A stretch of DNA of 14,178 bases. Origin: Anaerolineales bacterium (lineage in GTDB: Bacteria > Chloroflexota > Anaerolineae > 4572-78 > J111). The notes under the pieces were generated by a model, which saw only the letters and a list, made by a program, of their open reading frames with translations, was not told the origin of the DNA and did no database searches. Made by a program: the position numbers and the translations under genes. Below, piece by piece: positions 1,846 through 12,528 of this stretch (position 1 is the first letter of the stretch; every line of letters begins with the position of its first letter). The stretch lies in contig JAAUSP010000146.1 of NCBI GenBank assembly GCA_012032575.1, positions 1 through 14,178 on the forward strand, written 5' to 3'.

Positions 1846-2352
1846 GTGATCGAAGGTGTCGCGCCGTTGGAAGTCAATTTTACCGGAACCCTGCCTAACG
1901 AGTCAGGTGAGAACAGGGAAAATGCCTGCCAGGAGGGGCGGTTTGAGTTTGGAGACGGCAATTCGTTATCAGTGACGGCTGCCACGTGCGATCCTGAAAA
2001 GAAACGCGGCGACGTTGCCAATTACGTTTATGACGAACCGGGCGAGTATCAGGCCACTTATGCTGTCGGTCGCTTGAAGTCGGAGCCTTTGACGATCATC
2101 GTCAGAGGGTCAGGCGACACCCCCAGTCCCACCGACACCGCTACGACCATCGCAGTGCAGCCGACCACAATTGCCCCGCAGCCGACCGAAGCCCCGCTTG
2201 CCGAGGCTACGCCTGTCTCGCCTACCCCAACCCCCGCTGCGTCAAAAGTTGAGACTTCCGGCGCTTCCCTCTTCAACGTCTGGACGCTGCTTTTATTGCC
2301 CCTGCTGGGTCTGGCCGTTGGCTGGTTTATCTGGGGACGGGGAAGAAATTAA
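1846..2352 (+). CDS. PKD-like domain, Thr/Pro stalk and C-terminal membrane anchor, probably the detached end of the vWA gene
   Basis: Residues from the GTG at 1846: PKD-like beta-sandwich at about 1-85 (APLEVNFTG, FEFGDGNS, YVYDEPGEYQATY), with C28 and C48 as a possible disulfide; a Thr/Pro-rich stalk at about 90-135; a hydrophobic helix at 143-163 followed by WGRGRN. This is the layout of the C-terminal anchor of an exported protein, yet there is no signal peptide. No Shine-Dalgarno precedes the GTG. The frame is open back to 1813, and reading upstream gives LTADVIEGVAPLEVNF, an entry into the PKD fold that the GTG start would cut off. It therefore most likely continues the upstream vWA protein, joined if one more T were present in the T5 tract at 1831-1835. 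A genuine separate small gene is less likely. Confidence 0.7.
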   Translation: MIEGVAPLEVNFTGTLPNESGENRENACQEGRFEFGDGNSLSVTAATCDPEKKRGDVANYVYDEPGEYQATYAVGRLKSEPLTIIVRGSGDTPSPTDTATTIAVQPTTIAPQPTEAPLAEATPVSPTPTPAASKVETSGASLFNVWTLLLLPLLGLAVGWFIWGRGRN

Positions 2353-4536: not shown

Positions 4537-4831
4537 GGTTTCCCCCTTATTTCATCTGTCCTAACTTTTTTCCTATTTCATTTAGGCTTAAATGATATTA
4601 TTTTAAGTATACTCATTCTGTTGTTAATTTGTCCAATCCTGTCTACTTCAGTTTCTACTTGTTTTTCGCTGCCCCTTTTGACTAACTTGCCAGTGTAGGC
4701 TCAATACCAGCCCCTCTCACCTTTATTATTAATAAGCTTAATTGATTTCTCTTTAGTGACAATAAACCGCTTTGGTTTTCTGTTCAATGATAGATATGAA
4801 AAGTGTAATTGTTTGGCAAAGGAGAACACAA
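4537..4831. other. Low-GC divergent intergenic region
   Basis: This 295-bp AT-rich spacer separates the oxidoreductase (-) from the beta-helix gene (+) and must hold both promoters. A TATACT at 4608-4613 could be a plus-strand -10 box, without a convincing -35. A small dyad (CTTAAA 4587-4592, TTTAAG 4602-4607) lies just before it. An in-frame ATG at 4790 and an apparent earlier start at 4772 lack ribosome sites. No RNA gene or repeat was seen. Confidence 0.5.
4818..4824 (+). promoter_or_regulatory. Ribosome binding site AAAGGAG that sets the beta-helix protein start
   Basis: AAAGGAG lies 7 nt before the ATG at 4832. It decides against the longer in-frame start at 4772 and places a normal signal peptide at the N terminus. 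Confidence 0.75.
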
Positions 4832-5773
4832 ATGTCGAAATGTCGTCGGCTGCAAGTAAGTTTAAACCGGGTTGGGTTAGTTATAGTTGCGGCGCTACTT
4901 ATATCAATGGTTAGTTTGACCTTATTGGTGATGAATGCCGAGGCCAAACGTTCGAAAGGAGGGCCAGGGTGTGGAGGTGATTTAGCCAGTCTATTAGACC
5001 AGGTAGAAGATGGAGATGTTGTTGAGGTTTTAACAGGACCTACCGCCTGGGACTCAAACGGGGCTATCCTGACGAAGAATATCACTATTGAAGGTGGATG
5101 GCAGCTAATTACTACTACCTGTGTCAGTTCTGATACCAGCGGCTCTTCTTTTGAATGGCCGGCGGAACGTTCAATTATTGGAGATTACCCGCTGGACTCA
5201 ATAATCAGAATTAATCCACCACTCATCTCAACAACGATGCGCTATTTGGATATTGTTCAGGTAGCCGGGGGGGTGGCTCAAGGCGGCGCAATAAGTGGGG
5301 TCATTTCTGACGGGGCGCGCCTCTTATTGGACAATGTACTCATCACCAATAGCAGTGCTGATAGGGGCGGTGGGTTATATCTGGAGGTACGAGGCAACTC
5401 TCAACTCATATTGTCGGACACTGATTTCACTTTCAATACAGCCCAAAACACGGGGGGCGGTTTTGAGATTCATGTTTTCAACAATAGTCAAGTTACAATT
5501 ATTAATAGTCAGGTCTCTACCAATACTGCTACCAATGGGAATGGCGGCGGTGGCCGGATTGTGATTCATAGTGGTTCGGTCACTATTGCTAATAGCTCTT
5601 TCTTTGATAATCAAGCGAACGGGAGCGGTAAAGGACTATTAGTTGAAGGGGTGGGTAGCGGACCTGCTTACCTGATATTGCAGAATAATGTTTTTAGTTC
5701 CAGTTTGCAGATCAGTGGCACTGTCACTGTGCTAGATAAACAGACATTTCTGCCGATTGTCTTCAAGAAATGA
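4832..5773 (+). CDS. Secreted right-handed beta-helix protein with FLPIVFK C terminus
   Basis: A 313-residue exported protein. The N terminus has Lys/Arg (MSKCRRLQ), a hydrophobic core at about residues 14-34 and a likely signal peptidase I site after NAEA. After a short conserved-looking segment (GDLASLLDQVEDGDVVEV, ITIEGGW) come beta-helix coils with Pmp-like GGAI/GGGL/GGGF and F-x-x-N elements (GGAISG, FTFNTA, FFDNQA). It has pectin-lyase fold character but no identifiable catalytic set, so a surface or adhesive role is more likely than an enzyme. The C terminus, KQTFLPIVFKK, resembles the short hydrophobic LPxxxK/R endings I recall on many secreted Chloroflexota proteins. Low GC relative to the flanking core genes. 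Its stop at 5771-5773 is 8 nt from the end of the convergent giant gene. Function unknown. Confidence 0.75.
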   Translation: MSKCRRLQVSLNRVGLVIVAALLISMVSLTLLVMNAEAKRSKGGPGCGGDLASLLDQVEDGDVVEVLTGPTAWDSNGAILTKNITIEGGWQLITTTCVSSDTSGSSFEWPAERSIIGDYPLDSIIRINPPLISTTMRYLDIVQVAGGVAQGGAISGVISDGARLLLDNVLITNSSADRGGGLYLEVRGNSQLILSDTDFTFNTAQNTGGGFEIHVFNNSQVTIINSQVSTNTATNGNGGGGRIVIHSGSVTIANSSFFDNQANGSGKGLLVEGVGSGPAYLILQNNVFSSSLQISGTVTVLDKQTFLPIVFKK

Positions 5774-5781
5774 TGAATAGT

Positions 5782-7878
5782 TTATATTGCCCGGATATTC
5801 TTGAACTTAAAAGTGCCGCCGCGAATGACTCGACCTGATCCCTCCCAGGTAAAACCGGGGTTTAGCAACCCATACCCTTGCCGGTAATAAAGAGGAACAA
5901 CGGCCGTGTCTTCGGCGACTAAAATTCTATCAGCTTGATGGTAAAGTGCTAAACGGGCAGCATAGTTAGTCAAGCGAGCCGCCTGTTCCACAGCCTGGTC
6001 AAATTGTTGATTCTGCCAGCCAAGATAATTGTTAGGGCTGGCGCTGTGGAAAAGAACCCGCAGAATATCATCAGGATCAGGGTAATCTACGTCCCAGTTT
6101 GATAATGATAATTGTGCTACTCCCTGTTTCATCATTGCTGCGATTTCTTCAATTGAAACACCTTCTATAACTTGGACATGCGCCTCTAGGTGCTCACGCC
6201 AGCTTGACTGCAAAAAATTTGGCGTGGTGTCAAAACCAGGGGACAGGACAAGGGTCAGGGGAGGTAGGTCAGCTCCTGAATTGAAGCCCGCCTGTCGTAA
6301 AAGATTGCGGGCGGCAATAGGATCAAAGTTTAAACCTATTTCGGGTGAATGACCCGACATACCGGGTGGCACCACTCCACCTGAGGCTGCTCTTTGCCCA
6401 TTGGCCCAAACTTCTCGCATCAGCTCATCCAGATTAATCGCTCTGGCGAACGCTTGGCGCACTAACTTTTGGTTAAATGGCGGGAATTTACAGGCAAACT
6501 CCAAAAAAAATGTACCGAGATACTGCACCAAATATGTTTCATCAGGCCGATGCCTCAATAATTCGGGGGGCTTCCATAGGGGACACCAGTCAATCCTATT
6601 TGCCAGGTAATCATCTAAATTGGGTACATCAATAAAAAGCAATAAGGCCTGTTCCAGGTTGCCAGGAATATAACCATGATAGGCTGCACTCCTTGTCAAC
6701 AACATCTCTCGACCTGGCTGCCACTGTTCCACTCTAAAAGGGCCGTTACAAACCAAATTTTCCAGCTTCATCCAACCGGCTTCGTTAACCTGAACGATAT
6801 GGGCTGGCTGCGGAAAAGTAATAGAGGTTGCCAGGAGATAGGGAAAATAAGGGGTCGGTGCTGTTAAGGTAATTTCCAGGGTTAAATCATCTAAGGCTCT
6901 GATAGCTATAGAGGCAGGGTCGCTCCTCCGGCCTTGATGAAAATCCTCAGCACCCTGCACCACGTAAAGCTGCTGGGCAAAAGCGGCGACTGTGTCGGGA
7001 TGTAAGTTACGACGCCAGGCGAAAACAAAATCGTGAGCGGTCAGGGGGGTCCCATCGCTCCATTTGAGGCCAGAACGTAGTTCAAATTGGTAGTTTTGAC
7101 CGGTTTCATCAACGTGCCAACGTCGAGCTACGGCTGGAATAATGTTCAACTCCGTATCTAATTCGGTTAACCCCTCGAATAAATTTTTGATAATTTCTTC
7201 ATCATCCGTCGTGTCAATTAACCCCGGATCGAGCGTAGTTGGTTCGAACACGCCCACTCGAAATAGAGGCTTGCTATTCCCCGGAGTATCAAATGTTGGA
7301 GGTGTGTCTCGCTCCACCTGCTCCAACAACTCAAACGCCCGATCATAAAACTCCTGCGCCCCTTCAAAATCCAGTTGATTGGCCCGCACCTGGGCCAGTT
7401 TGAGATAGGTCTTGGCCCGGCGTTCCGAGTTGGGAAAGCCGCCGGCGGCCTCCTGCTCGTCGAGCAGCTTCAAAACGCGCTGGTACAGCATTTCGGCTTC
7501 TTCGTTGGCGTAGAGCAGGCGGGCCTGGTCGGCGGTTTGGAGGTGATAGTAGATGGCCTGCTCAAAATCGCTGGCCCGCTCGTAGTGGTAGGCCAGCAGG
7601 CCGGACTGCTCGGCGATACGGCCGGGAAAGAAGCGCTCCAAAGATTCGGCCACCTGGCGATGATAAGCCCGGCGGCGCTCGTAGAGCAGGGTGCTGTAGG
7701 CGCTCTCCTGGATCAGGCTGTGGCGAAAAGCGTAAGTCGGGCCGAGGTCGGTGGTAGCGCCGGGCAGCACGTAGCGGTCGGCTTCGAGGGTGGCCATCTG
7801 GCGCGACAAATCCTCCTCCCCGGCAGTCAGCACGGCCAAAACCTGGGTAAAAAAGGTCTCGCCGATGACCGACGCCAT
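5782..7878 (-). CDS. C-terminal half of giant cyclase protein: TPR region plus SBP_bac_5 solute-binding domain
   Basis: Numbering from the ATG at 7878: residues 1-60 finish the winged-helix part of the STAND ATPase (MASVIGETF, YAFRHSLIQESAYSTLL). Residues 65-190 are helical TPR-like (AIYYHLQTADQARLLYANEEAEMLYQRVLKLL, QEFYDRAFELLEQV). From about 205 to the end is a complete family-5 solute-binding domain of OppA/DppA type (RVGVFEPTTLDPG, FEGLTELD, SGLKWSDGTPLTAHDFVFAW, NGPFRVEQW, VRQAFARAIN). The TPR joins the binding domain through a short Pro/Thr linker, with no signal peptide or membrane helix, so the binding domain should be cytoplasmic. The ATG is internal to the motif TLQMASVIGETF and has no ribosome site, so this ORF is almost certainly the frameshifted continuation of 10178-7890 rather than its own gene. 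DNA for the SBP part (below about 7310) is clearly lower in GC than the TPR part. No ABC permease or ATPase gene is nearby. Confidence 0.85.
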   Translation of the reverse strand: MASVIGETFFTQVLAVLTAGEEDLSRQMATLEADRYVLPGATTDLGPTYAFRHSLIQESAYSTLLYERRRAYHRQVAESLERFFPGRIAEQSGLLAYHYERASDFEQAIYYHLQTADQARLLYANEEAEMLYQRVLKLLDEQEAAGGFPNSERRAKTYLKLAQVRANQLDFEGAQEFYDRAFELLEQVERDTPPTFDTPGNSKPLFRVGVFEPTTLDPGLIDTTDDEEIIKNLFEGLTELDTELNIIPAVARRWHVDETGQNYQFELRSGLKWSDGTPLTAHDFVFAWRRNLHPDTVAAFAQQLYVVQGAEDFHQGRRSDPASIAIRALDDLTLEITLTAPTPYFPYLLATSITFPQPAHIVQVNEAGWMKLENLVCNGPFRVEQWQPGREMLLTRSAAYHGYIPGNLEQALLLFIDVPNLDDYLANRIDWCPLWKPPELLRHRPDETYLVQYLGTFFLEFACKFPPFNQKLVRQAFARAINLDELMREVWANGQRAASGGVVPPGMSGHSPEIGLNFDPIAARNLLRQAGFNSGADLPPLTLVLSPGFDTTPNFLQSSWREHLEAHVQVIEGVSIEEIAAMMKQGVAQLSLSNWDVDYPDPDDILRVLFHSASPNNYLGWQNQQFDQAVEQAARLTNYAARLALYHQADRILVAEDTAVVPLYYRQGYGLLNPGFTWEGSGRVIRGGTFKFKNIRAI

Positions 7879-10178
7879 TTGCAGGGTATGACGGCTTCGA
7901 TGGCCAGGCGGTCAATCTGGGCCAATAACAAGCCGTGAACCGAATCGGGGATATTGAGCGATTCCAGGGTTATTTCATTCAGGTCAATATCGCCGGACAG
8001 GAAACCCTGGCTGCGCAGGGAGCGGATCATCTCGACCAGGAACAGCGGGTTGCCGCCGCTCTTCTCGACCAGGTAAGCCACCAGGCGCTCCGGCAAATCG
8101 GGGGCGGTATGGGCCACCAGCGCCGCCGCCGAGGCCGGCTCCAGACTGTCGAGGGTCAGGTCCAGCAGTTCGGGCGAATCGGGCTGCTCCAGCAGGTATT
8201 GGCGCAGCGCCCACACCCGGCTGTCACGCTCCGGGCGCATGGCCAAAAGCAGGATGATCGGGTGGCGGGTGGTCAAGGGCAGGATGGTTTCAATCAGTTG
8301 CAGTGAGGTCGGGTCGGCCCACTGCAAATCGTCCAGGGCCAGGGCCAGGGCGTGGCGGTGCGACAACTGCACCAGCAAATCGCGCGTTACCTCAAAAAGC
8401 TGCCAGCGAAAACTCTCGCCCGAAAGCCCTTCCAGCCGGCGGGCCAGCTCGTCGTCGAGGGGCAGGCCCATAAAGCGGGCCAGGTAGGGATAGGTAGCTT
8501 CCAGCCGGGCCGGGCCAAACAAATTGGCGCAAAAAGTCCGCAGGTGACGGCTGGACTCGTCAGGCCCGGCTCCGCTGGGCAGGTCCATCAGATCGCGCAG
8601 CACGCTGATGAACAGGTAGCCGCTGAGAGCCGAGCCGTAAGCCAGGCTGATGCCGCCGGCCCAGGCGGTTTCGGTTTCGGTGCGGAAGCGCAGAAAATCG
8701 AGAAAGTGGGTTTTACCCATGCCCACCTCGCCAATCAGAGTGATAACGCCGCCCTGACCGGCCGCCAGTTTTTCCAGGTTCCGTTGCAGTTGGGCCATTT
8801 CACGCTCACGGCCAAAAATCGGCCTGACCCTCCGGAAGCGGCGCGGTTCCGACTCGCCCAGCCCTGTCCGCACCGCCAGCGCGGCAAATACGGGGATGGG
8901 TTGGGCTTTGCCTTTGACCCGAATCGTCCCCAGGTCAGCCAGGTCAAATTCCGGCCCTAACACGTCCCGCACCCCTTTTTCCAGTAGAATCTGGTCGTCG
9001 GCGGCGTTTTGCATCAGCCGGGCCGACAGGTTGATCGAGTCGCCCATGGTGGTGTAATCACGGCGATCAGGCGAGCCAATTGGCCCGGCAAAAACCCGCC
9101 CACTGGTCACGCCGATGCGCTGCATGGCAATGAAGGGCAAGCCGCCACACTCGGCCTGCAAATCCAGGGCGCAGCGGATGGCCCGCGTCTCCTGCTCCTC
9201 GACCGACCGGGGCGCGCCGAAAATGACGTGGATCAAACTGCCTTTGTCGCCGGTAATCAACCGGTTGACCCGCCCGCCATAGCGCACTGCCGCTTGTTGG
9301 GCCGTGCTGAAGTAAGTCTGGAGTTTGGGACCAATTTCAGGGTCGGCGTCGTAATCCAGTCCGTGAAATTGCACAAACAAGCTGACCACCGGCTTGAGTT
9401 CGGCCACCTGAGCGCGGCCAGCGGCCAGAGTTTCGTAAATCTGGGGCGGCACATAGGGGATCAGCCGTTCCACCAGCGCCTTTTCCGCGCGGGGATGCCA
9501 TTGGAGCGGGGGCCAGGGTTTGGGCCGCGCCGGACGCAGTAACCGGCCCACTACCGCAAAATCGTCGCGCCACTCGGCGACAGTTATGGCTTCGGGCAGG
9601 GCGGCCAATGTTGCCCGGTCGAGCATAATATCGCCCGAATTGGCGTGGTGTTCAGCCTCGGCCATGCGGTCGAGCGTGGCTCCACCCAGCACATCTTCAT
9701 AGCCGTACTGAGGCAGGCCCAGGTTGAAGCGTTTGATCGAACCGTAGGTCAGGCCGATCTTCATTTTGAGGGTGATAATGCCGATGGGGGTCGGCACCTG
9801 GCCGTGAATCCGGATGGCCTGCTGCATGCGCCAGGCCGAGGTCAGCGCCCGCCGGATGACCGCCGCCCGCCGCACCCCGCGCTCGCGGGGATACCAGACA
9901 ATCAGGGCGTCGCCGCCAAATTTGATAACGCTGCCGCGAAACGCCTCAATTTCGGCAATGAGCGGGGTGAAGACGCCGCTGAGGGCGCGGGTCAACTCTT
10001 CCGCCCCCTGATCGGGGCTGAGGCCCTGGGTCAGGGCTTCGGTCAGCGGGGTAAAGCCGGAGATGTCGGCAATCAGGGCAACGCCCTCTTCGGGCAGCAG
10101 GGTATCGGGCCGGAGGATGTGCTCCACCCGGTCACGGGGAATATAAGCAGCCAGGGCAGGGAGAAGGGCAACGGTCAT
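7827..10178 (-). CDS. N-terminal half of giant protein: tandem soluble-adenylyl-cyclase-like domains plus AAA/STAND ATPase
   Basis: Numbering from the ATG at 10178. Cyclase domain C1 (about 30-215) has both metal Asp (D38 in ADISGF, D90 in KFGGD). C2 (about 262-435) lacks the first Asp (Q270) but keeps K312 (TGDKGS), T376, N383 and R387 (DYTTMGDSINLSARLM). This is the pseudo-heterodimer of soluble adenylyl cyclase, with one expected ATP-to-cAMP site. An AAA_16/NB-ARC-like ATPase starts at GRERE (456): Walker A GEVGMGKT 483-490, Walker B ALALDDLQWAD with D616/D617. No signal peptide or membrane segment. Real homology ends near residue 763 (DRLAIEAV); the last 20 residues after it look like out-of-frame read-through. 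Adding one base near 7889 restores AV-H-TLQMASVIGETF and a protein of about 1,465 residues with the following ORF. Last gene of the tsaE-tsaB-rimI-udg run; its ribosome site lies inside a palindrome. Confidence 0.88.
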   Translation of the reverse strand: MTVALLPALAAYIPRDRVEHILRPDTLLPEEGVALIADISGFTPLTEALTQGLSPDQGAEELTRALSGVFTPLIAEIEAFRGSVIKFGGDALIVWYPRERGVRRAAVIRRALTSAWRMQQAIRIHGQVPTPIGIITLKMKIGLTYGSIKRFNLGLPQYGYEDVLGGATLDRMAEAEHHANSGDIMLDRATLAALPEAITVAEWRDDFAVVGRLLRPARPKPWPPLQWHPRAEKALVERLIPYVPPQIYETLAAGRAQVAELKPVVSLFVQFHGLDYDADPEIGPKLQTYFSTAQQAAVRYGGRVNRLITGDKGSLIHVIFGAPRSVEEQETRAIRCALDLQAECGGLPFIAMQRIGVTSGRVFAGPIGSPDRRDYTTMGDSINLSARLMQNAADDQILLEKGVRDVLGPEFDLADLGTIRVKGKAQPIPVFAALAVRTGLGESEPRRFRRVRPIFGREREMAQLQRNLEKLAAGQGGVITLIGEVGMGKTHFLDFLRFRTETETAWAGGISLAYGSALSGYLFISVLRDLMDLPSGAGPDESSRHLRTFCANLFGPARLEATYPYLARFMGLPLDDELARRLEGLSGESFRWQLFEVTRDLLVQLSHRHALALALDDLQWADPTSLQLIETILPLTTRHPIILLLAMRPERDSRVWALRQYLLEQPDSPELLDLTLDSLEPASAAALVAHTAPDLPERLVAYLVEKSGGNPLFLVEMIRSLRSQGFLSGDIDLNEITLESLNIPDSVHGLLLAQIDRLAIEAVIPCKWRRSSARPFLPRFWPC

Positions 10179-10237: not shown

Positions 10238-11224
10238 TTACCCTATAGCCATTTTCAAAACCGGATGATGCGTTGGAAACTGGAGTCCAAGGCTTGCTTT
10301 GAAAGAGACAAAGCAAGCTTTGGACTCCAATCTTTTAAATTGCCCGTATTTAAGCGCTAAATCCGGGTTAAAAAGGTTCAGTTGGGTCGCACTTGACGGG
10401 GCTGCTTCTTTGGGCCGGCTAAAAGCGGCGGCTTCCTGGATGAATTGGGGCAGTTTTTGGAAATCTTCAATCAATAAGGGCCGCCATTTGGGTTGGTGCA
10501 GCGCCGCCGCCGGGTGGAACATCGGCACAATCAGCCGATGGCCGATCTGTTGGGCCTGACCGTGAATTTTGGTGATTGAAGCGCCGGGGAAATAGCGGTA
10601 CATAGAGAAGCGGCCCAGGGTGACAATGACCTTGGGATCAATCAGCTCCACCTGCCGGTCGAGATAGCCTTTGCAGGCGGCCAATTCGTCGGCTTCGGGA
10701 TCGCGGTTGTTGGGCGGGCGGCACTTGACCACGTTGGTAATGAAAACTTCGTCACGCTTGAAGCCGATGCCGTGCAGCAGCTCCTCCAGGAATTGGCCCG
10801 CCGCGCCGACAAAGGGCCGGCCCTGTTTGTCTTCGTTGAAGCCCGGCCCCTCACCGATGAACATGATCTGGGCATTGGCCGGTCCTTCGCCGGGCACAGC
10901 GCGGCTGCGGCCCTGGTGGAGCGGGCAGCGCGTGCAGTCGTGTACCGTGCGGGCAATCTGGCGCAAATCCATCCGGGGCACAGGAGGCAGGGTGGCCGGG
11001 TCAATCAGCGGCAGAGGATAATCGCGGACCCAACTGTCGCTGCCCCTGGCTTTGCGAAACCAGTCGCCTTTGGGGCTGAGCATCCAGACATCGCCCCAGA
11101 CTTCGTCGGGCAGGCGCATCTGGCGCAGGATGGCGTCACGCTCGGCTTCGGCGATTTCACCACCGGCGCAACGGGCTTTGACCGCTTCGACCTGATTTTG
11201 AAACTCAACAAACTTGTTGGGCAT
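10238..11224 (-). CDS. Family-4 (4Fe-4S) uracil-DNA glycosylase with N-terminal SHOCT/WW-like module
   Basis: Removes uracil from DNA in base excision repair. The catalytic core is about residues 85-265: cluster cysteines C97, C100, C168 and C184 (CTRCPLHQGR, TNVVKCRPPNNRDP, ELAACKGYL), uracil-pocket motif GEGPGFNED 124-132 and C-terminal motif HPAAAL 237-242. Usual length is about 190-220 residues; here it is 328. The extra N terminus (about 5-70) has a helical SHOCT-like part (QVEAVKARCAGGEIAEAERDAIL) followed by an aromatic part (DVWMLSPKGDWFRKARGSDSWV). I recall this combination on diverse Chloroflexota proteins, where it may bind a partner or sense something. The C-terminal tail beyond about residue 299 is coded by an inverted repeat and is probably non-functional. 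ATG at 11224 follows the rimI stop by 3 nt, suggesting translational coupling. Confidence 0.9.
   Translation of the reverse strand: MPNKFVEFQNQVEAVKARCAGGEIAEAERDAILRQMRLPDEVWGDVWMLSPKGDWFRKARGSDSWVRDYPLPLIDPATLPPVPRMDLRQIARTVHDCTRCPLHQGRSRAVPGEGPANAQIMFIGEGPGFNEDKQGRPFVGAAGQFLEELLHGIGFKRDEVFITNVVKCRPPNNRDPEADELAACKGYLDRQVELIDPKVIVTLGRFSMYRYFPGASITKIHGQAQQIGHRLIVPMFHPAAALHQPKWRPLLIEDFQKLPQFIQEAAAFSRPKEAAPSSATQLNLFNPDLALKYGQFKRLESKACFVSFKASLGLQFPTHHPVLKMAIG
10281..10329. repeat. 21-bp inverted repeat within the udg 3' coding end
   Basis: Arms 10281-10301 and 10309-10329 are complementary over 21 bp with one mismatch (position 10291), loop AAAGAGA (10302-10308). It codes for residues about 299-315 of the UDG, past the conserved fold. 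No T-tract follows on the minus strand, so it is not a standard terminator. It may be a small mobile palindrome that landed near the old stop codon. Confidence 0.8.
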
Positions 11225-11227
11225 AGC

Positions 11228-11860
11228 TTAAATTTTAGCCAGGCGTTGGAAAAGCGCAACCTTGTGCCGGGCCAGCATGGCCTGATAATCCGGCAGTGCG
11301 AGCGCCGGTGTGGTTAAAATAAGGGCATCTTCGTCGTTGTCGCTGTAGTAACGGGGGCGACGCCCCACCTGCTCAAAGCCGTATTTTTGATACAGGGCCA
11401 GGGCCGGGTGGTTGGAGGGACGCACTTCCAGGGTAGCTACGGCTGCCCCCAACGCCTGACTCGTCTCGAGCAGGTGCAATAACAGCCATTCGCCCAGGCC
11501 CAGGCCACGCCAATCAGGCTGAACGGCGATGGTGCTGACGTGGGCTTCGTCGGCCATGAGCCAGAAACCGGCCAGACCAATGATAATAGAGGTTTCAGCG
11601 GCAGTAAGACCGGGGACCGGAGACTGAGGACCGGGTTGAGGGTTGTCTGCTAGTTGTGAGGATGAGGGTCCAAGAGGAGGGTGGGGTAGAGAAGTGTGCA
11701 GGACAAAATAGTGGGCGAATTGGTTGTACTGGAGTTCGTATTCAAAGGCATGCATAGGCCAGTTCATGGCGTAGGAGGCCCGTTCAATGGCGATGACGGC
11801 GGGAAGGTCGGCCAGGGTCATCGGTTCAATTGTGAAGGGTAAAGCGGACTGCTCAGGCAC
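11228..11860 (-). CDS. rimI: RimI-type GNAT N-acetyltransferase with internal Pro-rich insert
   Basis: Acetyl-CoA-dependent N-alpha-acetyltransferase, in most bacteria acting on ribosomal protein S18 and found beside tsaB. The GNAT fold is clear: N-terminal IEPMTLADLPAVIAIERASY, MADEAHVSTIAVQP (beta 4), acetyl-CoA loop DWRGLGLGEWLL (116-127), LEVRPSNHPALALYQKYGFEQVGRRPRYY and the closing EDALIL typical of RimI. Length is 210 residues against the usual 150 or so: about 34 Pro/Ser-rich residues (57-90) sit between YFVLHTS and SIIIGLAGFW, where relatives have a short turn, and they are coded by microrepeat DNA. The GTG start at 11860 shares one base with the tsaB TAG stop, so the genes are translationally coupled. 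The family call is firm; the exact substrate is inferred from context. Confidence 0.9.
   Translation of the reverse strand: MPEQSALPFTIEPMTLADLPAVIAIERASYAMNWPMHAFEYELQYNQFAHYFVLHTSLPHPPLGPSSSQLADNPQPGPQSPVPGLTAAETSIIIGLAGFWLMADEAHVSTIAVQPDWRGLGLGEWLLLHLLETSQALGAAVATLEVRPSNHPALALYQKYGFEQVGRRPRYYSDNDEDALILTTPALALPDYQAMLARHKVALFQRLAKI
11608..11635. repeat. ACCGG microrepeat inside rimI
   Basis: Direct GACCGGGGACCGG-type units with a degenerate GGAGACTGAGG middle. They code for part of the extra Pro-rich loop of RimI (NPQPGPQSPVPG). The look is like the short tandem repeats known from cyanobacteria. Confidence 0.6.
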
Positions 11861-12528
11861 TACGCACTCACCGAGGGCGAGGGTAAATAAATGGGGGCCA
11901 GGGCGTCGGGGTCATCCTGGTCGCCGGCTTCGAGGCGTTGGGCGGCAATTTCGGCCAAATAACCGGCGCGGCGCAGACGGTTAGCCGGGGAGGCGATCAG
12001 CGCTTTGTGGTCCGAACTCCGCTGCAATATTTGCGCGGCCTGGGCGTCAATCTCGCCGGTGCAGAGGGCGGGCTGGTTGATCTGTCCGGCCAGGGTTTCG
12101 ACTGTGGTCAAATGAGGTTCGATCAAAAACTGCCAATTTTCTTCGCCCTGACCATAACAGGCGGCGATGATGCGTCCTCGCCCGGCCTGAAGAATGACCC
12201 AGATGGGCAGACTTTGAGATTGCAACGGGTAGGCAGCTATTTCGAGGGTAGAGACGCCGATGACCGGCAGTTTGTGGGGCAGAGCCAGACCTTTGGCCGC
12301 GGCCAGGCTGATCCGCACCCCGGTAAAGGAACCCGGCCCCAGCGATACGGCCAGCGCCGTCACATCGGCAATTTTTAGACTGGCCTGGGCCAGCATGCGG
12401 ACCAGCCGGGGCATCACTTCGACGGTGTGGTTGCGGCCGGAAAACCAACTCTCTTCGGCCAGCACGCCATCCGGGTGGTACAGGGCCAGGCTGGCGTATT
12501 GGGTGGCGGTGTCAATGGCGAGAATCAT
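11860..12528 (-). CDS. tsaB: TsaB, tRNA t6A37 threonylcarbamoyltransferase complex subunit
   Basis: TsaB is the inactive ASKHA-fold partner that binds TsaD and TsaE in the cytoplasmic complex making N6-threonylcarbamoyladenosine at tRNA position 37. The 222-residue protein has a typical length and signatures: MILAIDTATQ start, SGRNHTVEVMPRL (30-42), GPGSFTGVRISLAAAKGLA (64-82) and ISTLE-like GVSTLEIAAY (91-100). ATG at 12528 is fixed by the MILAIDT motif. No ribosome site lies directly upstream; the nearest AAAGGA (minus strand, 12595-12590) is 61 nt away, separated by a microrepeat hairpin. The gene sits between tsaE and rimI, a common order. tsaC and tsaD are not in the window. Confidence 0.95.
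   Translation of the reverse strand: MILAIDTATQYASLALYHPDGVLAEESWFSGRNHTVEVMPRLVRMLAQASLKIADVTALAVSLGPGSFTGVRISLAAAKGLALPHKLPVIGVSTLEIAAYPLQSQSLPIWVILQAGRGRIIAACYGQGEENWQFLIEPHLTTVETLAGQINQPALCTGEIDAQAAQILQRSSDHKALIASPANRLRRAGYLAEIAAQRLEAGDQDDPDALAPIYLPSPSVSA

What the first reader, a model, noticed from the sequence alone, without database searches (positions are those of the whole stretch)
5782..10178. sAC-like cyclase, STAND ATPase, TPR and solute-binding domain in one polypeptide
Seen: two cyclase domains, Walker A/B ATPase, TPR helices and a complete SBP_bac_5 domain in one minus-strand gene once one base is restored. Known: C1-C2-NTPase-TPR is the layout of soluble adenylyl cyclase; SBP_bac_5 is normally a secreted ABC-transporter lipoprotein, but SgrR of enteric bacteria uses it as a cytoplasmic sensor. 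Inferred: no signal or membrane helix, so the binding domain sits in the cytoplasm and may gate cAMP production in response to a peptide, sugar or similar ligand. I do not know a described system of this exact make-up.
Basis: partly seen in the sequence, partly recalled or inferred. Interest (0 to 1): 0.82.

Follow-up and report, generated by a model that had tools for sequence, protein, structure and literature searches.

The report
Cyclase receptor with swappable sensor cassette
A bacterial gene encodes an intracellular receptor that joins a human-sAC-like cyclase, an ATPase switch and a peptide-binding-type sensor, and among close relatives the sensor end is exchanged together with a neighbouring secreted-protein gene, much as in bacterial loci where a signal and its receptor change together.

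Summary
The minus-strand gene (5782-10178) encodes two class III cyclase domains, a STAND ATPase, TPR helices and a full OppA-type SBP_bac_5 domain. The single frameshift is a lesion of this copy or its assembly; unbroken ~1460-aa relatives exist. Key cyclase and STAND residues are invariant in 36 of 36 rows. No signal peptide or membrane helix is apparent. Fused SBPs form one clade apart from 58 unfused ones; the two-cyclase class is one clade within it, other outputs interchange.

The SBP end of the gene plus the convergent secreted beta-helix gene form one sharply bounded variable block (4658-7309). Against a relative about 90% identical in most flanking DNA it falls to 53-66%, with silent sites near saturation. 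Of 33 close pairs, 28 carry different SBP types, 5 the same, none intermediate. In a second lineage SBP and beta-helix switch together. 12 of 12 assessable related loci keep the beta-helix; 0 of 21 loci of other output classes do. Best reading: a cytoplasmic receptor whose specificity cassette is exchanged as alleles, pherotype-like. Ligand, cAMP output and cognate signalling are inferred; strict pairing is not shown.

The parts
9474..10103 (-). cyclase domain C1 (residues 26-235 of the joined protein); metal Asp38 and Asp90, Lys86
   Evidence: aligned to ADCY10 C1; Asp38 and Asp90 36/36, Lys86 35/36 rows
8865..9416 (-). cyclase domain C2 (255-438); Lys312, Thr376, Asn383, Arg387 at the sAC K334/T405/N412/R416 places (sAC numbers recalled)
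   Evidence: Pfam PF00211, alignment to ADCY10, each 36/36
8250..8819 (-). STAND NTPase (AAA_16, residues 454-643): Walker A GEVGMGKT, Walker B LALDD; Arg648 and the GNP motif 709-711 follow it
   Evidence: tested residues 36/36
7827..7896 (-). overlap of the two ORFs with a one-base frameshift; intact copies exist
   Evidence: unbroken relatives
7294..7878 (-). arm and TPR-type helices
   Evidence: model md4997180895a, helices 92-191 of ORF2
5785..7278 (-). OppA-type SBP (SBP_bac_5) sensor domain without signal peptide; Asp1365 aligns with OppA Asp419 (role recalled)
4832..5773 (+). secreted right-handed beta-helix protein, tail-to-tail with the receptor gene (8 bp apart)
   Evidence: PF13229 just under cut-off; signal-like N-terminus ending AEA; model pLDDT 90.1; linked in 12 of 12 assessable related loci
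4658..7309 (.). variable block: SBP-coding end of the receptor gene plus the beta-helix gene, 53-66% DNA identity to L001 against mostly 81-95% outside
   Evidence: 250-base profile; changepoints; silent sites

Best explanation
The gene makes a soluble one-piece receptor. In the resting state the STAND ATPase is held closed by its arm/TPR/SBP end; when the cytoplasmic OppA-fold domain closes on a small ligand (most likely a peptide or other amine-bearing compound), the STAND opens, exchanges ADP for ATP and multimerises, and the sAC-like C1-C2 pair makes cAMP for the many cNMP-binding proteins of such hosts. The SBP domain and the convergent secreted beta-helix gene form one exchangeable specificity cassette: alleles of both are replaced together between conserved flanks, so the secreted protein is probably the source, carrier or processor of the ligand, or a surface partner, that the cognate SBP type reports on (pherotype- or kin-recognition-like). 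Shown by computation: domains, intact residues, one-clade origin of the fused SBPs in this sample, conserved gene pair, joint replacement. Inferred: ligand binding, STAND switching, cAMP output, cognate function.
For: Domains and residues. One clade of fused SBPs, two-cyclase class one clade in it. cNMP-binding domains in 8 of 8 relatives' genomes, 15-33 matches each. Gene pair. Variable block with sharp edges. Discrete types: 33 close pairs, 5 at SBP >=80%, 0 between, 28 at 47-67%, in five lineages. Joint switch: L004b-L005 cyclase 94, STAND/TPR 88, SBP 47, beta-helix 60, while L005-L008 are 93/90/87/91 and L003-L005 78/79/78/79. Near-identical strain: window-P0008 STAND/TPR 98%, SBP 58%, beta-helix 48% (partner P0257 assigned by equal contig length). 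Core topology is rejected for both SBP and beta-helix data, and each fits the other's tree better than the core tree, by 112 and 101 log units. Control: in other output classes, 3 of 3 pairs >=85% before the SBP keep a like SBP (82-94%).
Against: Over 17 loci the partial correlation of SBP and beta-helix identity given core is about zero (0.02; 2036 of 5000 permutations as high); most pairs are distant and near the floor. SBP and beta-helix trees are not the same: the SBP topology is rejected for beta-helix data (234 log units) and the beta-helix topology weakly for SBP data (AU p 0.0225); P0008's beta-helix groups with L002's with full support while its SBP does not. So pairing is not strict. 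The control has only 3 pairs, and one weaker other-class pair (P0095-P0116, 79% before, 45% in the SBP) does show a mosaic. One lineage (P0064/P0066) breaks inside the SBP. The amine-binding Asp is kept in only 31 of 68 two-cyclase rows. No ligand, assay or import route shown. The window's own copy is frameshifted.
Confidence: 0.5

Rival explanations
1. Nutrient sensing: the SBP reports on an imported nutrient (peptide or sugar), the beta-helix protein is a secreted glycan- or polymer-active protein whose product is sensed, and allele exchange tracks local food.
For: Beta-helix folds are common in polysaccharide lyases (recalled); weak PDB matches include PL6 alginate lyases. Relatives' genomes carry 12-33 SBP_bac_5 matches.
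Against: No enzyme family recognised, best PDB matches at TM 0.3-0.5 and rmsd about 10; no transporter family among the window ORFs scanned; many discrete types inside one close lineage are more usual for recognition loci (judgement).
Confidence: 0.2
2. Selection acts only on the secreted beta-helix (phage or grazer target, serotype-like) and the SBP is dragged along.
For: The genes touch tail-to-tail (-46 to +72 bp in the 11 loci with both ends printed), so one exchange easily carries both; in window-L001 the beta-helix is more diverged than the SBP (37 against 60%), though in L004-L005 less (60 against 47%).
Against: Break points in four of five lineages sit at the last TPR/SBP junction (residues 897-958) and not at scattered places; the gene pair is absent from the 21 loci of other classes.
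Confidence: 0.12
3. Immune/defence receptor: the SBP end is a fast-exchanged invader sensor, cAMP the alarm.
For: STAND architecture; cyclases and kinases recur as parts of diversifying conflict systems (passages of PMC7159879).
Against: An OppA-type small-molecule binder and a secreted partner do not fit a usual defence locus; no effector recognised among the scanned neighbours (the PADLOC library was not searched).
Confidence: 0.08
4. The SBP is a ligand-free scaffold whose drift is relaxed.
For: The OppA Asp419 position is Asp in only 31 of 68 two-cyclase rows.
Against: Full high-confidence fold; discrete types and not a continuum; over 12 different-type pairs the lobe that does not touch ligand in OppA (domain II, boundaries recalled) is 59-75% kept, against 24-61% for domain I-b and 43-64% for domain III.
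Confidence: 0.07

Closest known systems
Mammalian soluble adenylyl cyclase (ADCY10)
   Same: C1 with metal Asp, C2 with Lys/Thr/Asn/Arg set, no TM; NTPase and TPR-like remainder (recalled)
   Different: has no SBP domain (recalled); bicarbonate site not settled here
STAND regulators with TPR sensor (MalT, PH0952; abstract of PMC6468293 read)
   Same: STAND core plus TPR, small inducer expected
   Different: output is a cyclase pair; an OppA fold follows the TPRs
SgrR / DsvR transcription factors (passages of PMC13060122)
   Same: C-terminal SBP_bac_5 in a transcription factor, i.e. in the cytoplasm
   Different: they have an N-terminal HTH and no STAND, TPR or cyclase
comQXPA pherotype loci (passages of PMC4408185)
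   Same: signal-side and receptor-side genes polymorphic together, coexisting types within a species
   Different: there a membrane histidine kinase and a small modified peptide (recalled); here a cytoplasmic STAND-cyclase and a 313-aa secreted beta-helix in convergent genes
Polymorphic toxin / CDI loci (listing of PMC3482391; otherwise recalled)
   Same: constant N-terminus, variable C-terminus plus variable neighbour
   Different: no toxin domain, neighbour is secreted and convergent
TIGR03903 TOMM kinase/cyclase fusion
   Same: cyclase-STAND-TPR stretch aligns
   Different: 110.7 bits against a cut-off of 705.75; no kinase found, extra SBP

Membership tests
sAC-like class III adenylyl cyclase | complementary C1/C2 with metal Asp in C1 and adenine/transition-state residues in C2 | tested here: met
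sAC-like class III adenylyl cyclase | bicarbonate-binding Lys95 and Arg176 (recalled) | tested here: inconclusive
   Lys86 matches Lys95 (35/36); an Arg lies near but not exactly at Arg176 in the alignment
sAC-like class III adenylyl cyclase | makes cAMP | not testable with these tools
   needs enzyme assay
STAND NTPase | Walker A, Walker B, sensor Arg, GNP motif, C-terminal superstructure sensor | tested here: met
STAND NTPase | ADP/ATP switch and multimerisation | not testable with these tools
   needs biochemistry
OppA/DppE-type SBP | full OppA-type fold | tested here: met
OppA/DppE-type SBP | export signal and role in an ABC importer | tested here: not met
   no signal, fused to cytoplasmic domains, no transporter family among the window ORFs scanned
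SgrR family | N-terminal HTH | tested here: not met
   no HTH family
pherotype-type polymorphic locus | variable receptor part and variable adjacent secreted partner between conserved flanks | tested here: met
pherotype-type polymorphic locus | cognate alleles strictly co-inherited | tested here: inconclusive
   joint switches, shared discordance, but partial correlation near zero and P0008/L002 mismatch
pherotype-type polymorphic locus | secreted partner activates only the cognate receptor | not testable with these tools
   needs assay
TIGR03903 | score over curated cut-off | tested here: not met

The most novel reading that the evidence does not exclude
A new kind of bacterial self-recognition or communication locus: a secreted beta-helix protein is read, through fragments taken up by the cell, by an internalised OppA-type domain on a STAND-sAC receptor, and populations keep many exchangeable sensor/partner alleles, so that cAMP signalling is strain-specific.
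Probability: 0.3. Interest if true: 0.93.

Novelty: new variant of a known kind. Interest (0 to 1): 0.83.

Why it matters
It shows a transport-type binding domain captured inside the cell as an exchangeable sensor for a STAND switch, with cyclase, kinase or transcription-factor outputs in front, and it links the layout of mammalian sAC, whose longer isoforms carry presumptive regulatory domains not yet characterised (abstract of PMC12802110), to a bacterial version with a definable ligand domain. The variable sensor-plus-secreted-protein cassette gives a direct, testable lead on how these Chloroflexota might tell strains or conditions apart.

Tried and rejected
Own genome: none held (an error); relatives' genomes were searched through locus handles instead. 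Assembly chimera as the cause of the variable block: rejected because it recurs in separate assemblies (window, P0008, P0010, L001; L004 against L005/L008; P0023/P0026; P0004 against P0015) and, where DNA is held, at one syntenic place, with one orthologue per genome at the thresholds used. Fast amino-acid evolution alone: rejected, fourfold sites fall too (window-L001 77% to 35%; L005-L004b 84% to 42%; against 81% to 73% for same-type L005-L008). Gene conversion from a paralogue: not likely, the next best match in G001 and G002 is about 36% identical. Partial Mantel test: negative. Beta-helix as a named enzyme or anchor family: no NCBIfam hit, Pfam only Beta_helix near its cut-off. A DNA edge for L008-L004 on the far side ran into unaligned sequence and is not used. 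Labels: my first labelling counted six one-cyclase proteins as two-cyclase; correct this (63 instead of 69 of the listed 120; 68 rows instead of 74; 19 tree changes instead of 20); the 33 close pairs are unchanged. Paper searches: searches returned none; others listed no paper whose title or abstract start describes this architecture or locus; only open PMC papers were covered.

Papers: passages read of PMC13060122, PMC7159879, PMC4408185, PMC9602780; abstract of PMC6468293; abstract and opening of PMC12802110; PMC3482391 seen only in listings. OppA Asp419, OppA domain boundaries and sAC residue numbers are recalled and mapped through.

Full report
WHAT IS THERE. On the minus strand, ORF1 7827-10178 (783 aa) and ORF2 5782-7878 (698 aa) are two halves of one gene separated by a single frameshift. 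Read through, the protein has 1465 residues: C1 26-235, C2 255-438, STAND from about 450, arm and TPR to about 955, SBP 968-1462 (profile matches). Pfam finds Guanylate_cyc (C2), AAA_16 and SBP_bac_5; C1 is found through human ADCY10. ORF2 models at pLDDT 91.8 as helices and a full SBP, closest to B. subtilis DppE and OppA, with the pheromone receptor PrgZ also in the list. There is no strongly hydrophobic stretch.

THE FUSION IS REAL. A search with residues 960-1465 among proteins of 0.55-1.75 times the full length gave 300 hits at E<=1e-3, the best 120 listed (only the 7993 candidates sharing most words were scored). All 120 match both an SBP and a STAND profile. By output they are: 63 two-cyclase, 15 one-cyclase, 10 kinase, 15 BTAD/SARP, 7 BTAD+kinase, 10 with no recognised output or partial. 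The nearest, P0001, is 1462 aa, unbroken and 87% identical over the SBP. The window's break is therefore a defect of this copy or its assembly.

INTACT MACHINERY. In 36 aligned rows (window and 35 close relatives) the C1 Asp38 and Asp90, C2 Lys312, Thr376, Asn383, Arg387, the tested Walker A and B residues and Arg648 are invariant; Lys86 is 35 of 36. This predicts an active sAC-type adenylyl cyclase and a working STAND switch. The Asp that in OppA binds the peptide amine (recalled, mapped) is present in the window but varies: Asp in 31 of 68 two-cyclase rows, Glu in 15. Eight relatives' genomes have 15-33 cNMP-binding matches each (8 of 8) and 12-33 SBP_bac_5 matches (8 of 8).

ORIGIN. In a 171-row SBP tree (113 rows from fused proteins, 58 unfused SBPs chosen out of 98 unfused rows, fragments and rows lacking the N-terminal part dropped; 55 of the 58 have a signal-like hydrophobic N-terminus), the 58 unfused rows are one side of one branch (100*), so the fused SBPs come from one capture in this sample. 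The 63 two-cyclase rows are one side of one branch too (99*): this class kept its SBP clade. The other outputs interchange; all labels together need at least 19 changes against a possible minimum of 6 (which corrects; quick LG+G4 tree, 53 of 168 inner branches weakly supported; truncated proteins may inflate the count).

THE SECOND GENE. A secreted beta-helix protein (4832-5773, plus strand) runs tail-to-tail into the receptor gene, 8 bp apart. Of 16 genome loci, ten keep the receptor with its SBP end (L001-L009, L013) and all ten have the beta-helix there (L003 cut by the contig end). L010 and L016 are cut off by contig ends and cannot be judged; L011, L012, L014 and L015 are distant or partial matches. 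Two more relatives (L057, two-cyclase; L079, cut before the cyclases and placed by its STAND and SBP scores) have it too, so 12 of 12 assessable. Of 21 loci of other output classes (none with two separate cyclase domains, 2.1-9.8 kb held beyond the receptor stop), 0 have it (profile E<=1e-4). The linked copy is the genome's best hit in 7 of 8 genomes; in the eighth (G003) the best hit lies on another contig and the gene may be split over contig ends. All 16 complete partners out of 17 start with a hydrophobic, signal-like stretch. Fold: beta-helix model pLDDT 90.1, weak PDB matches only, no NCBIfam family.

THE VARIABLE BLOCK. Window against L001 (Anaerolineales bacterium H5_CFX5): 250-base bins outside the block are mostly 81-95% identical (lowest 69-78%: an intergenic stretch, one bin in rimI, one in the molybdopterin gene, and 1679-2428), but 53-66% from 7178 down to 4679, and 83-90% again just beyond. 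Changepoints: 7309 and 4658, that is, from the TPR/SBP junction to just before the beta-helix gene. A second lineage shows the same: L005 against L004 is 85-97% over the receptor core, 50-68% over SBP plus beta-helix, 90-94% over the next 2.4 kb. Silent fourfold sites fall from 77% to 35% and from 84% to 42%; for the same-type pair L005-L008 only from 81% to 73%. This is allele replacement, not just fast protein change.

DISCRETE TYPES. Among 68 two-cyclase rows (six duplicates of genome loci and six mislabelled one-cyclase rows dropped), 33 pairs are >=85% identical in STAND/TPR. Their SBPs are >=80% identical in 5 pairs, in between in 0, and 47-67% in 28, in five lineages. In the window's lineage there are six types among seven members. 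P0008 is 100% and 98% identical to the window in cyclase and STAND/TPR, yet 58% in the SBP. Break points fall at residues 897-958 in four lineages and at 1072, inside the SBP, in the fifth. In other output classes (47 proteins) 3 of 3 pairs >=85% before the SBP keep a like SBP (82-94%); one weaker pair (P0095-P0116, 79/45) does not.

DO SENSOR AND PARTNER SWITCH TOGETHER? In the L003/L004/L005/L008 group, yes: L003, L005 and L008 share both SBP (78-87%) and beta-helix (79-91%; for L003 over 162 residues), L004 differs in both (46-47%, 60-61%) although it is 93-94% identical to L005 and L008 in the cyclases and 88-90% in STAND/TPR. For protein-only relatives the partner was assigned by equal contig length and source (P0005-P0251, P0008-P0257, P0011-P0274, P0017-P0279), an inference. 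Tree tests on 16 loci (L003 left out; with it the outcome is the same): SBP data reject the core topology by 145 log units and the beta-helix topology by only 33 (AU p 0.0225); beta-helix data reject core by 335 and SBP by 234. Window+P0005 and L001+P0011 are grouped by both SBP and beta-helix and not by core (L001+P0011 only weakly in the SBP tree, support 45). Against: partial correlation 0.02 over 17 loci, and P0008's beta-helix sits with L002's while its SBP does not. So linkage is frequent but not strict.

HOW IT MOST LIKELY WORKS. STAND regulators with TPR sensors are held closed and open on inducer binding (abstract of PMC6468293). Here the inducer site is most likely the OppA-type cleft; opening and multimerisation would bring the C1-C2 pair into its active state. 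Between types the lobe that does not touch ligand in OppA is better kept (59-75%) than domain I-b (24-61%) or III (43-64%; 12 different-type pairs; boundaries recalled), as expected if ligand choice is what changes. The conserved secreted partner that changes with the sensor makes a specificity pair (pherotype- or kin-recognition-like) the best reading; nutrient sensing is the main rival. None of these functional steps has been tested.

KNOWN OR NEW. The parts are known kinds; databases already name such fusions automatically (JGI names), and SBP profiles are known to match sensor domains of signalling proteins (passages of PMC9602780). I found no description of this architecture, or of the joint sensor/beta-helix polymorphism, in what ten searches of open papers listed; subscription papers were not covered.

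Noticed in passing
P0002 (1991 aa): STAND remnant followed by three SBP_bac_5 domains in tandem; its N-terminus seems to be missing.
   Followed up: partly
P0069-P0120: The same STAND-TPR-SBP chassis carries kinase, SARP/BTAD, kinase+BTAD, one-cyclase or zinc-ribbon+cyclase outputs.
   Followed up: partly
L004:4879-9552: A second 1557-aa ORF directly upstream of the receptor in the same direction, only about 20% identical to it.
   Followed up: no
window 4832-5773 and L004, L005, L006, L008, L009, L013, L057: Partners end either in FLPIV-type tails or in a longer C-terminal part with a GNCxxLP-like end; two forms of the same secreted family.
   Followed up: no
window 1846-2352: Unassigned 168-aa ORF, in the next most variable stretch against L001 (69-73% DNA identity).
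   Followed up: no
window 10238-12528: tsaB, rimI and a type-4 uracil-DNA glycosylase run in the same direction just upstream of the receptor; kept in L001 but not seen in L002.
   Followed up: partly
P0095, P0116: A one-cyclase pair with the same kind of mosaic (79% before, 45% in the SBP).
   Followed up: no
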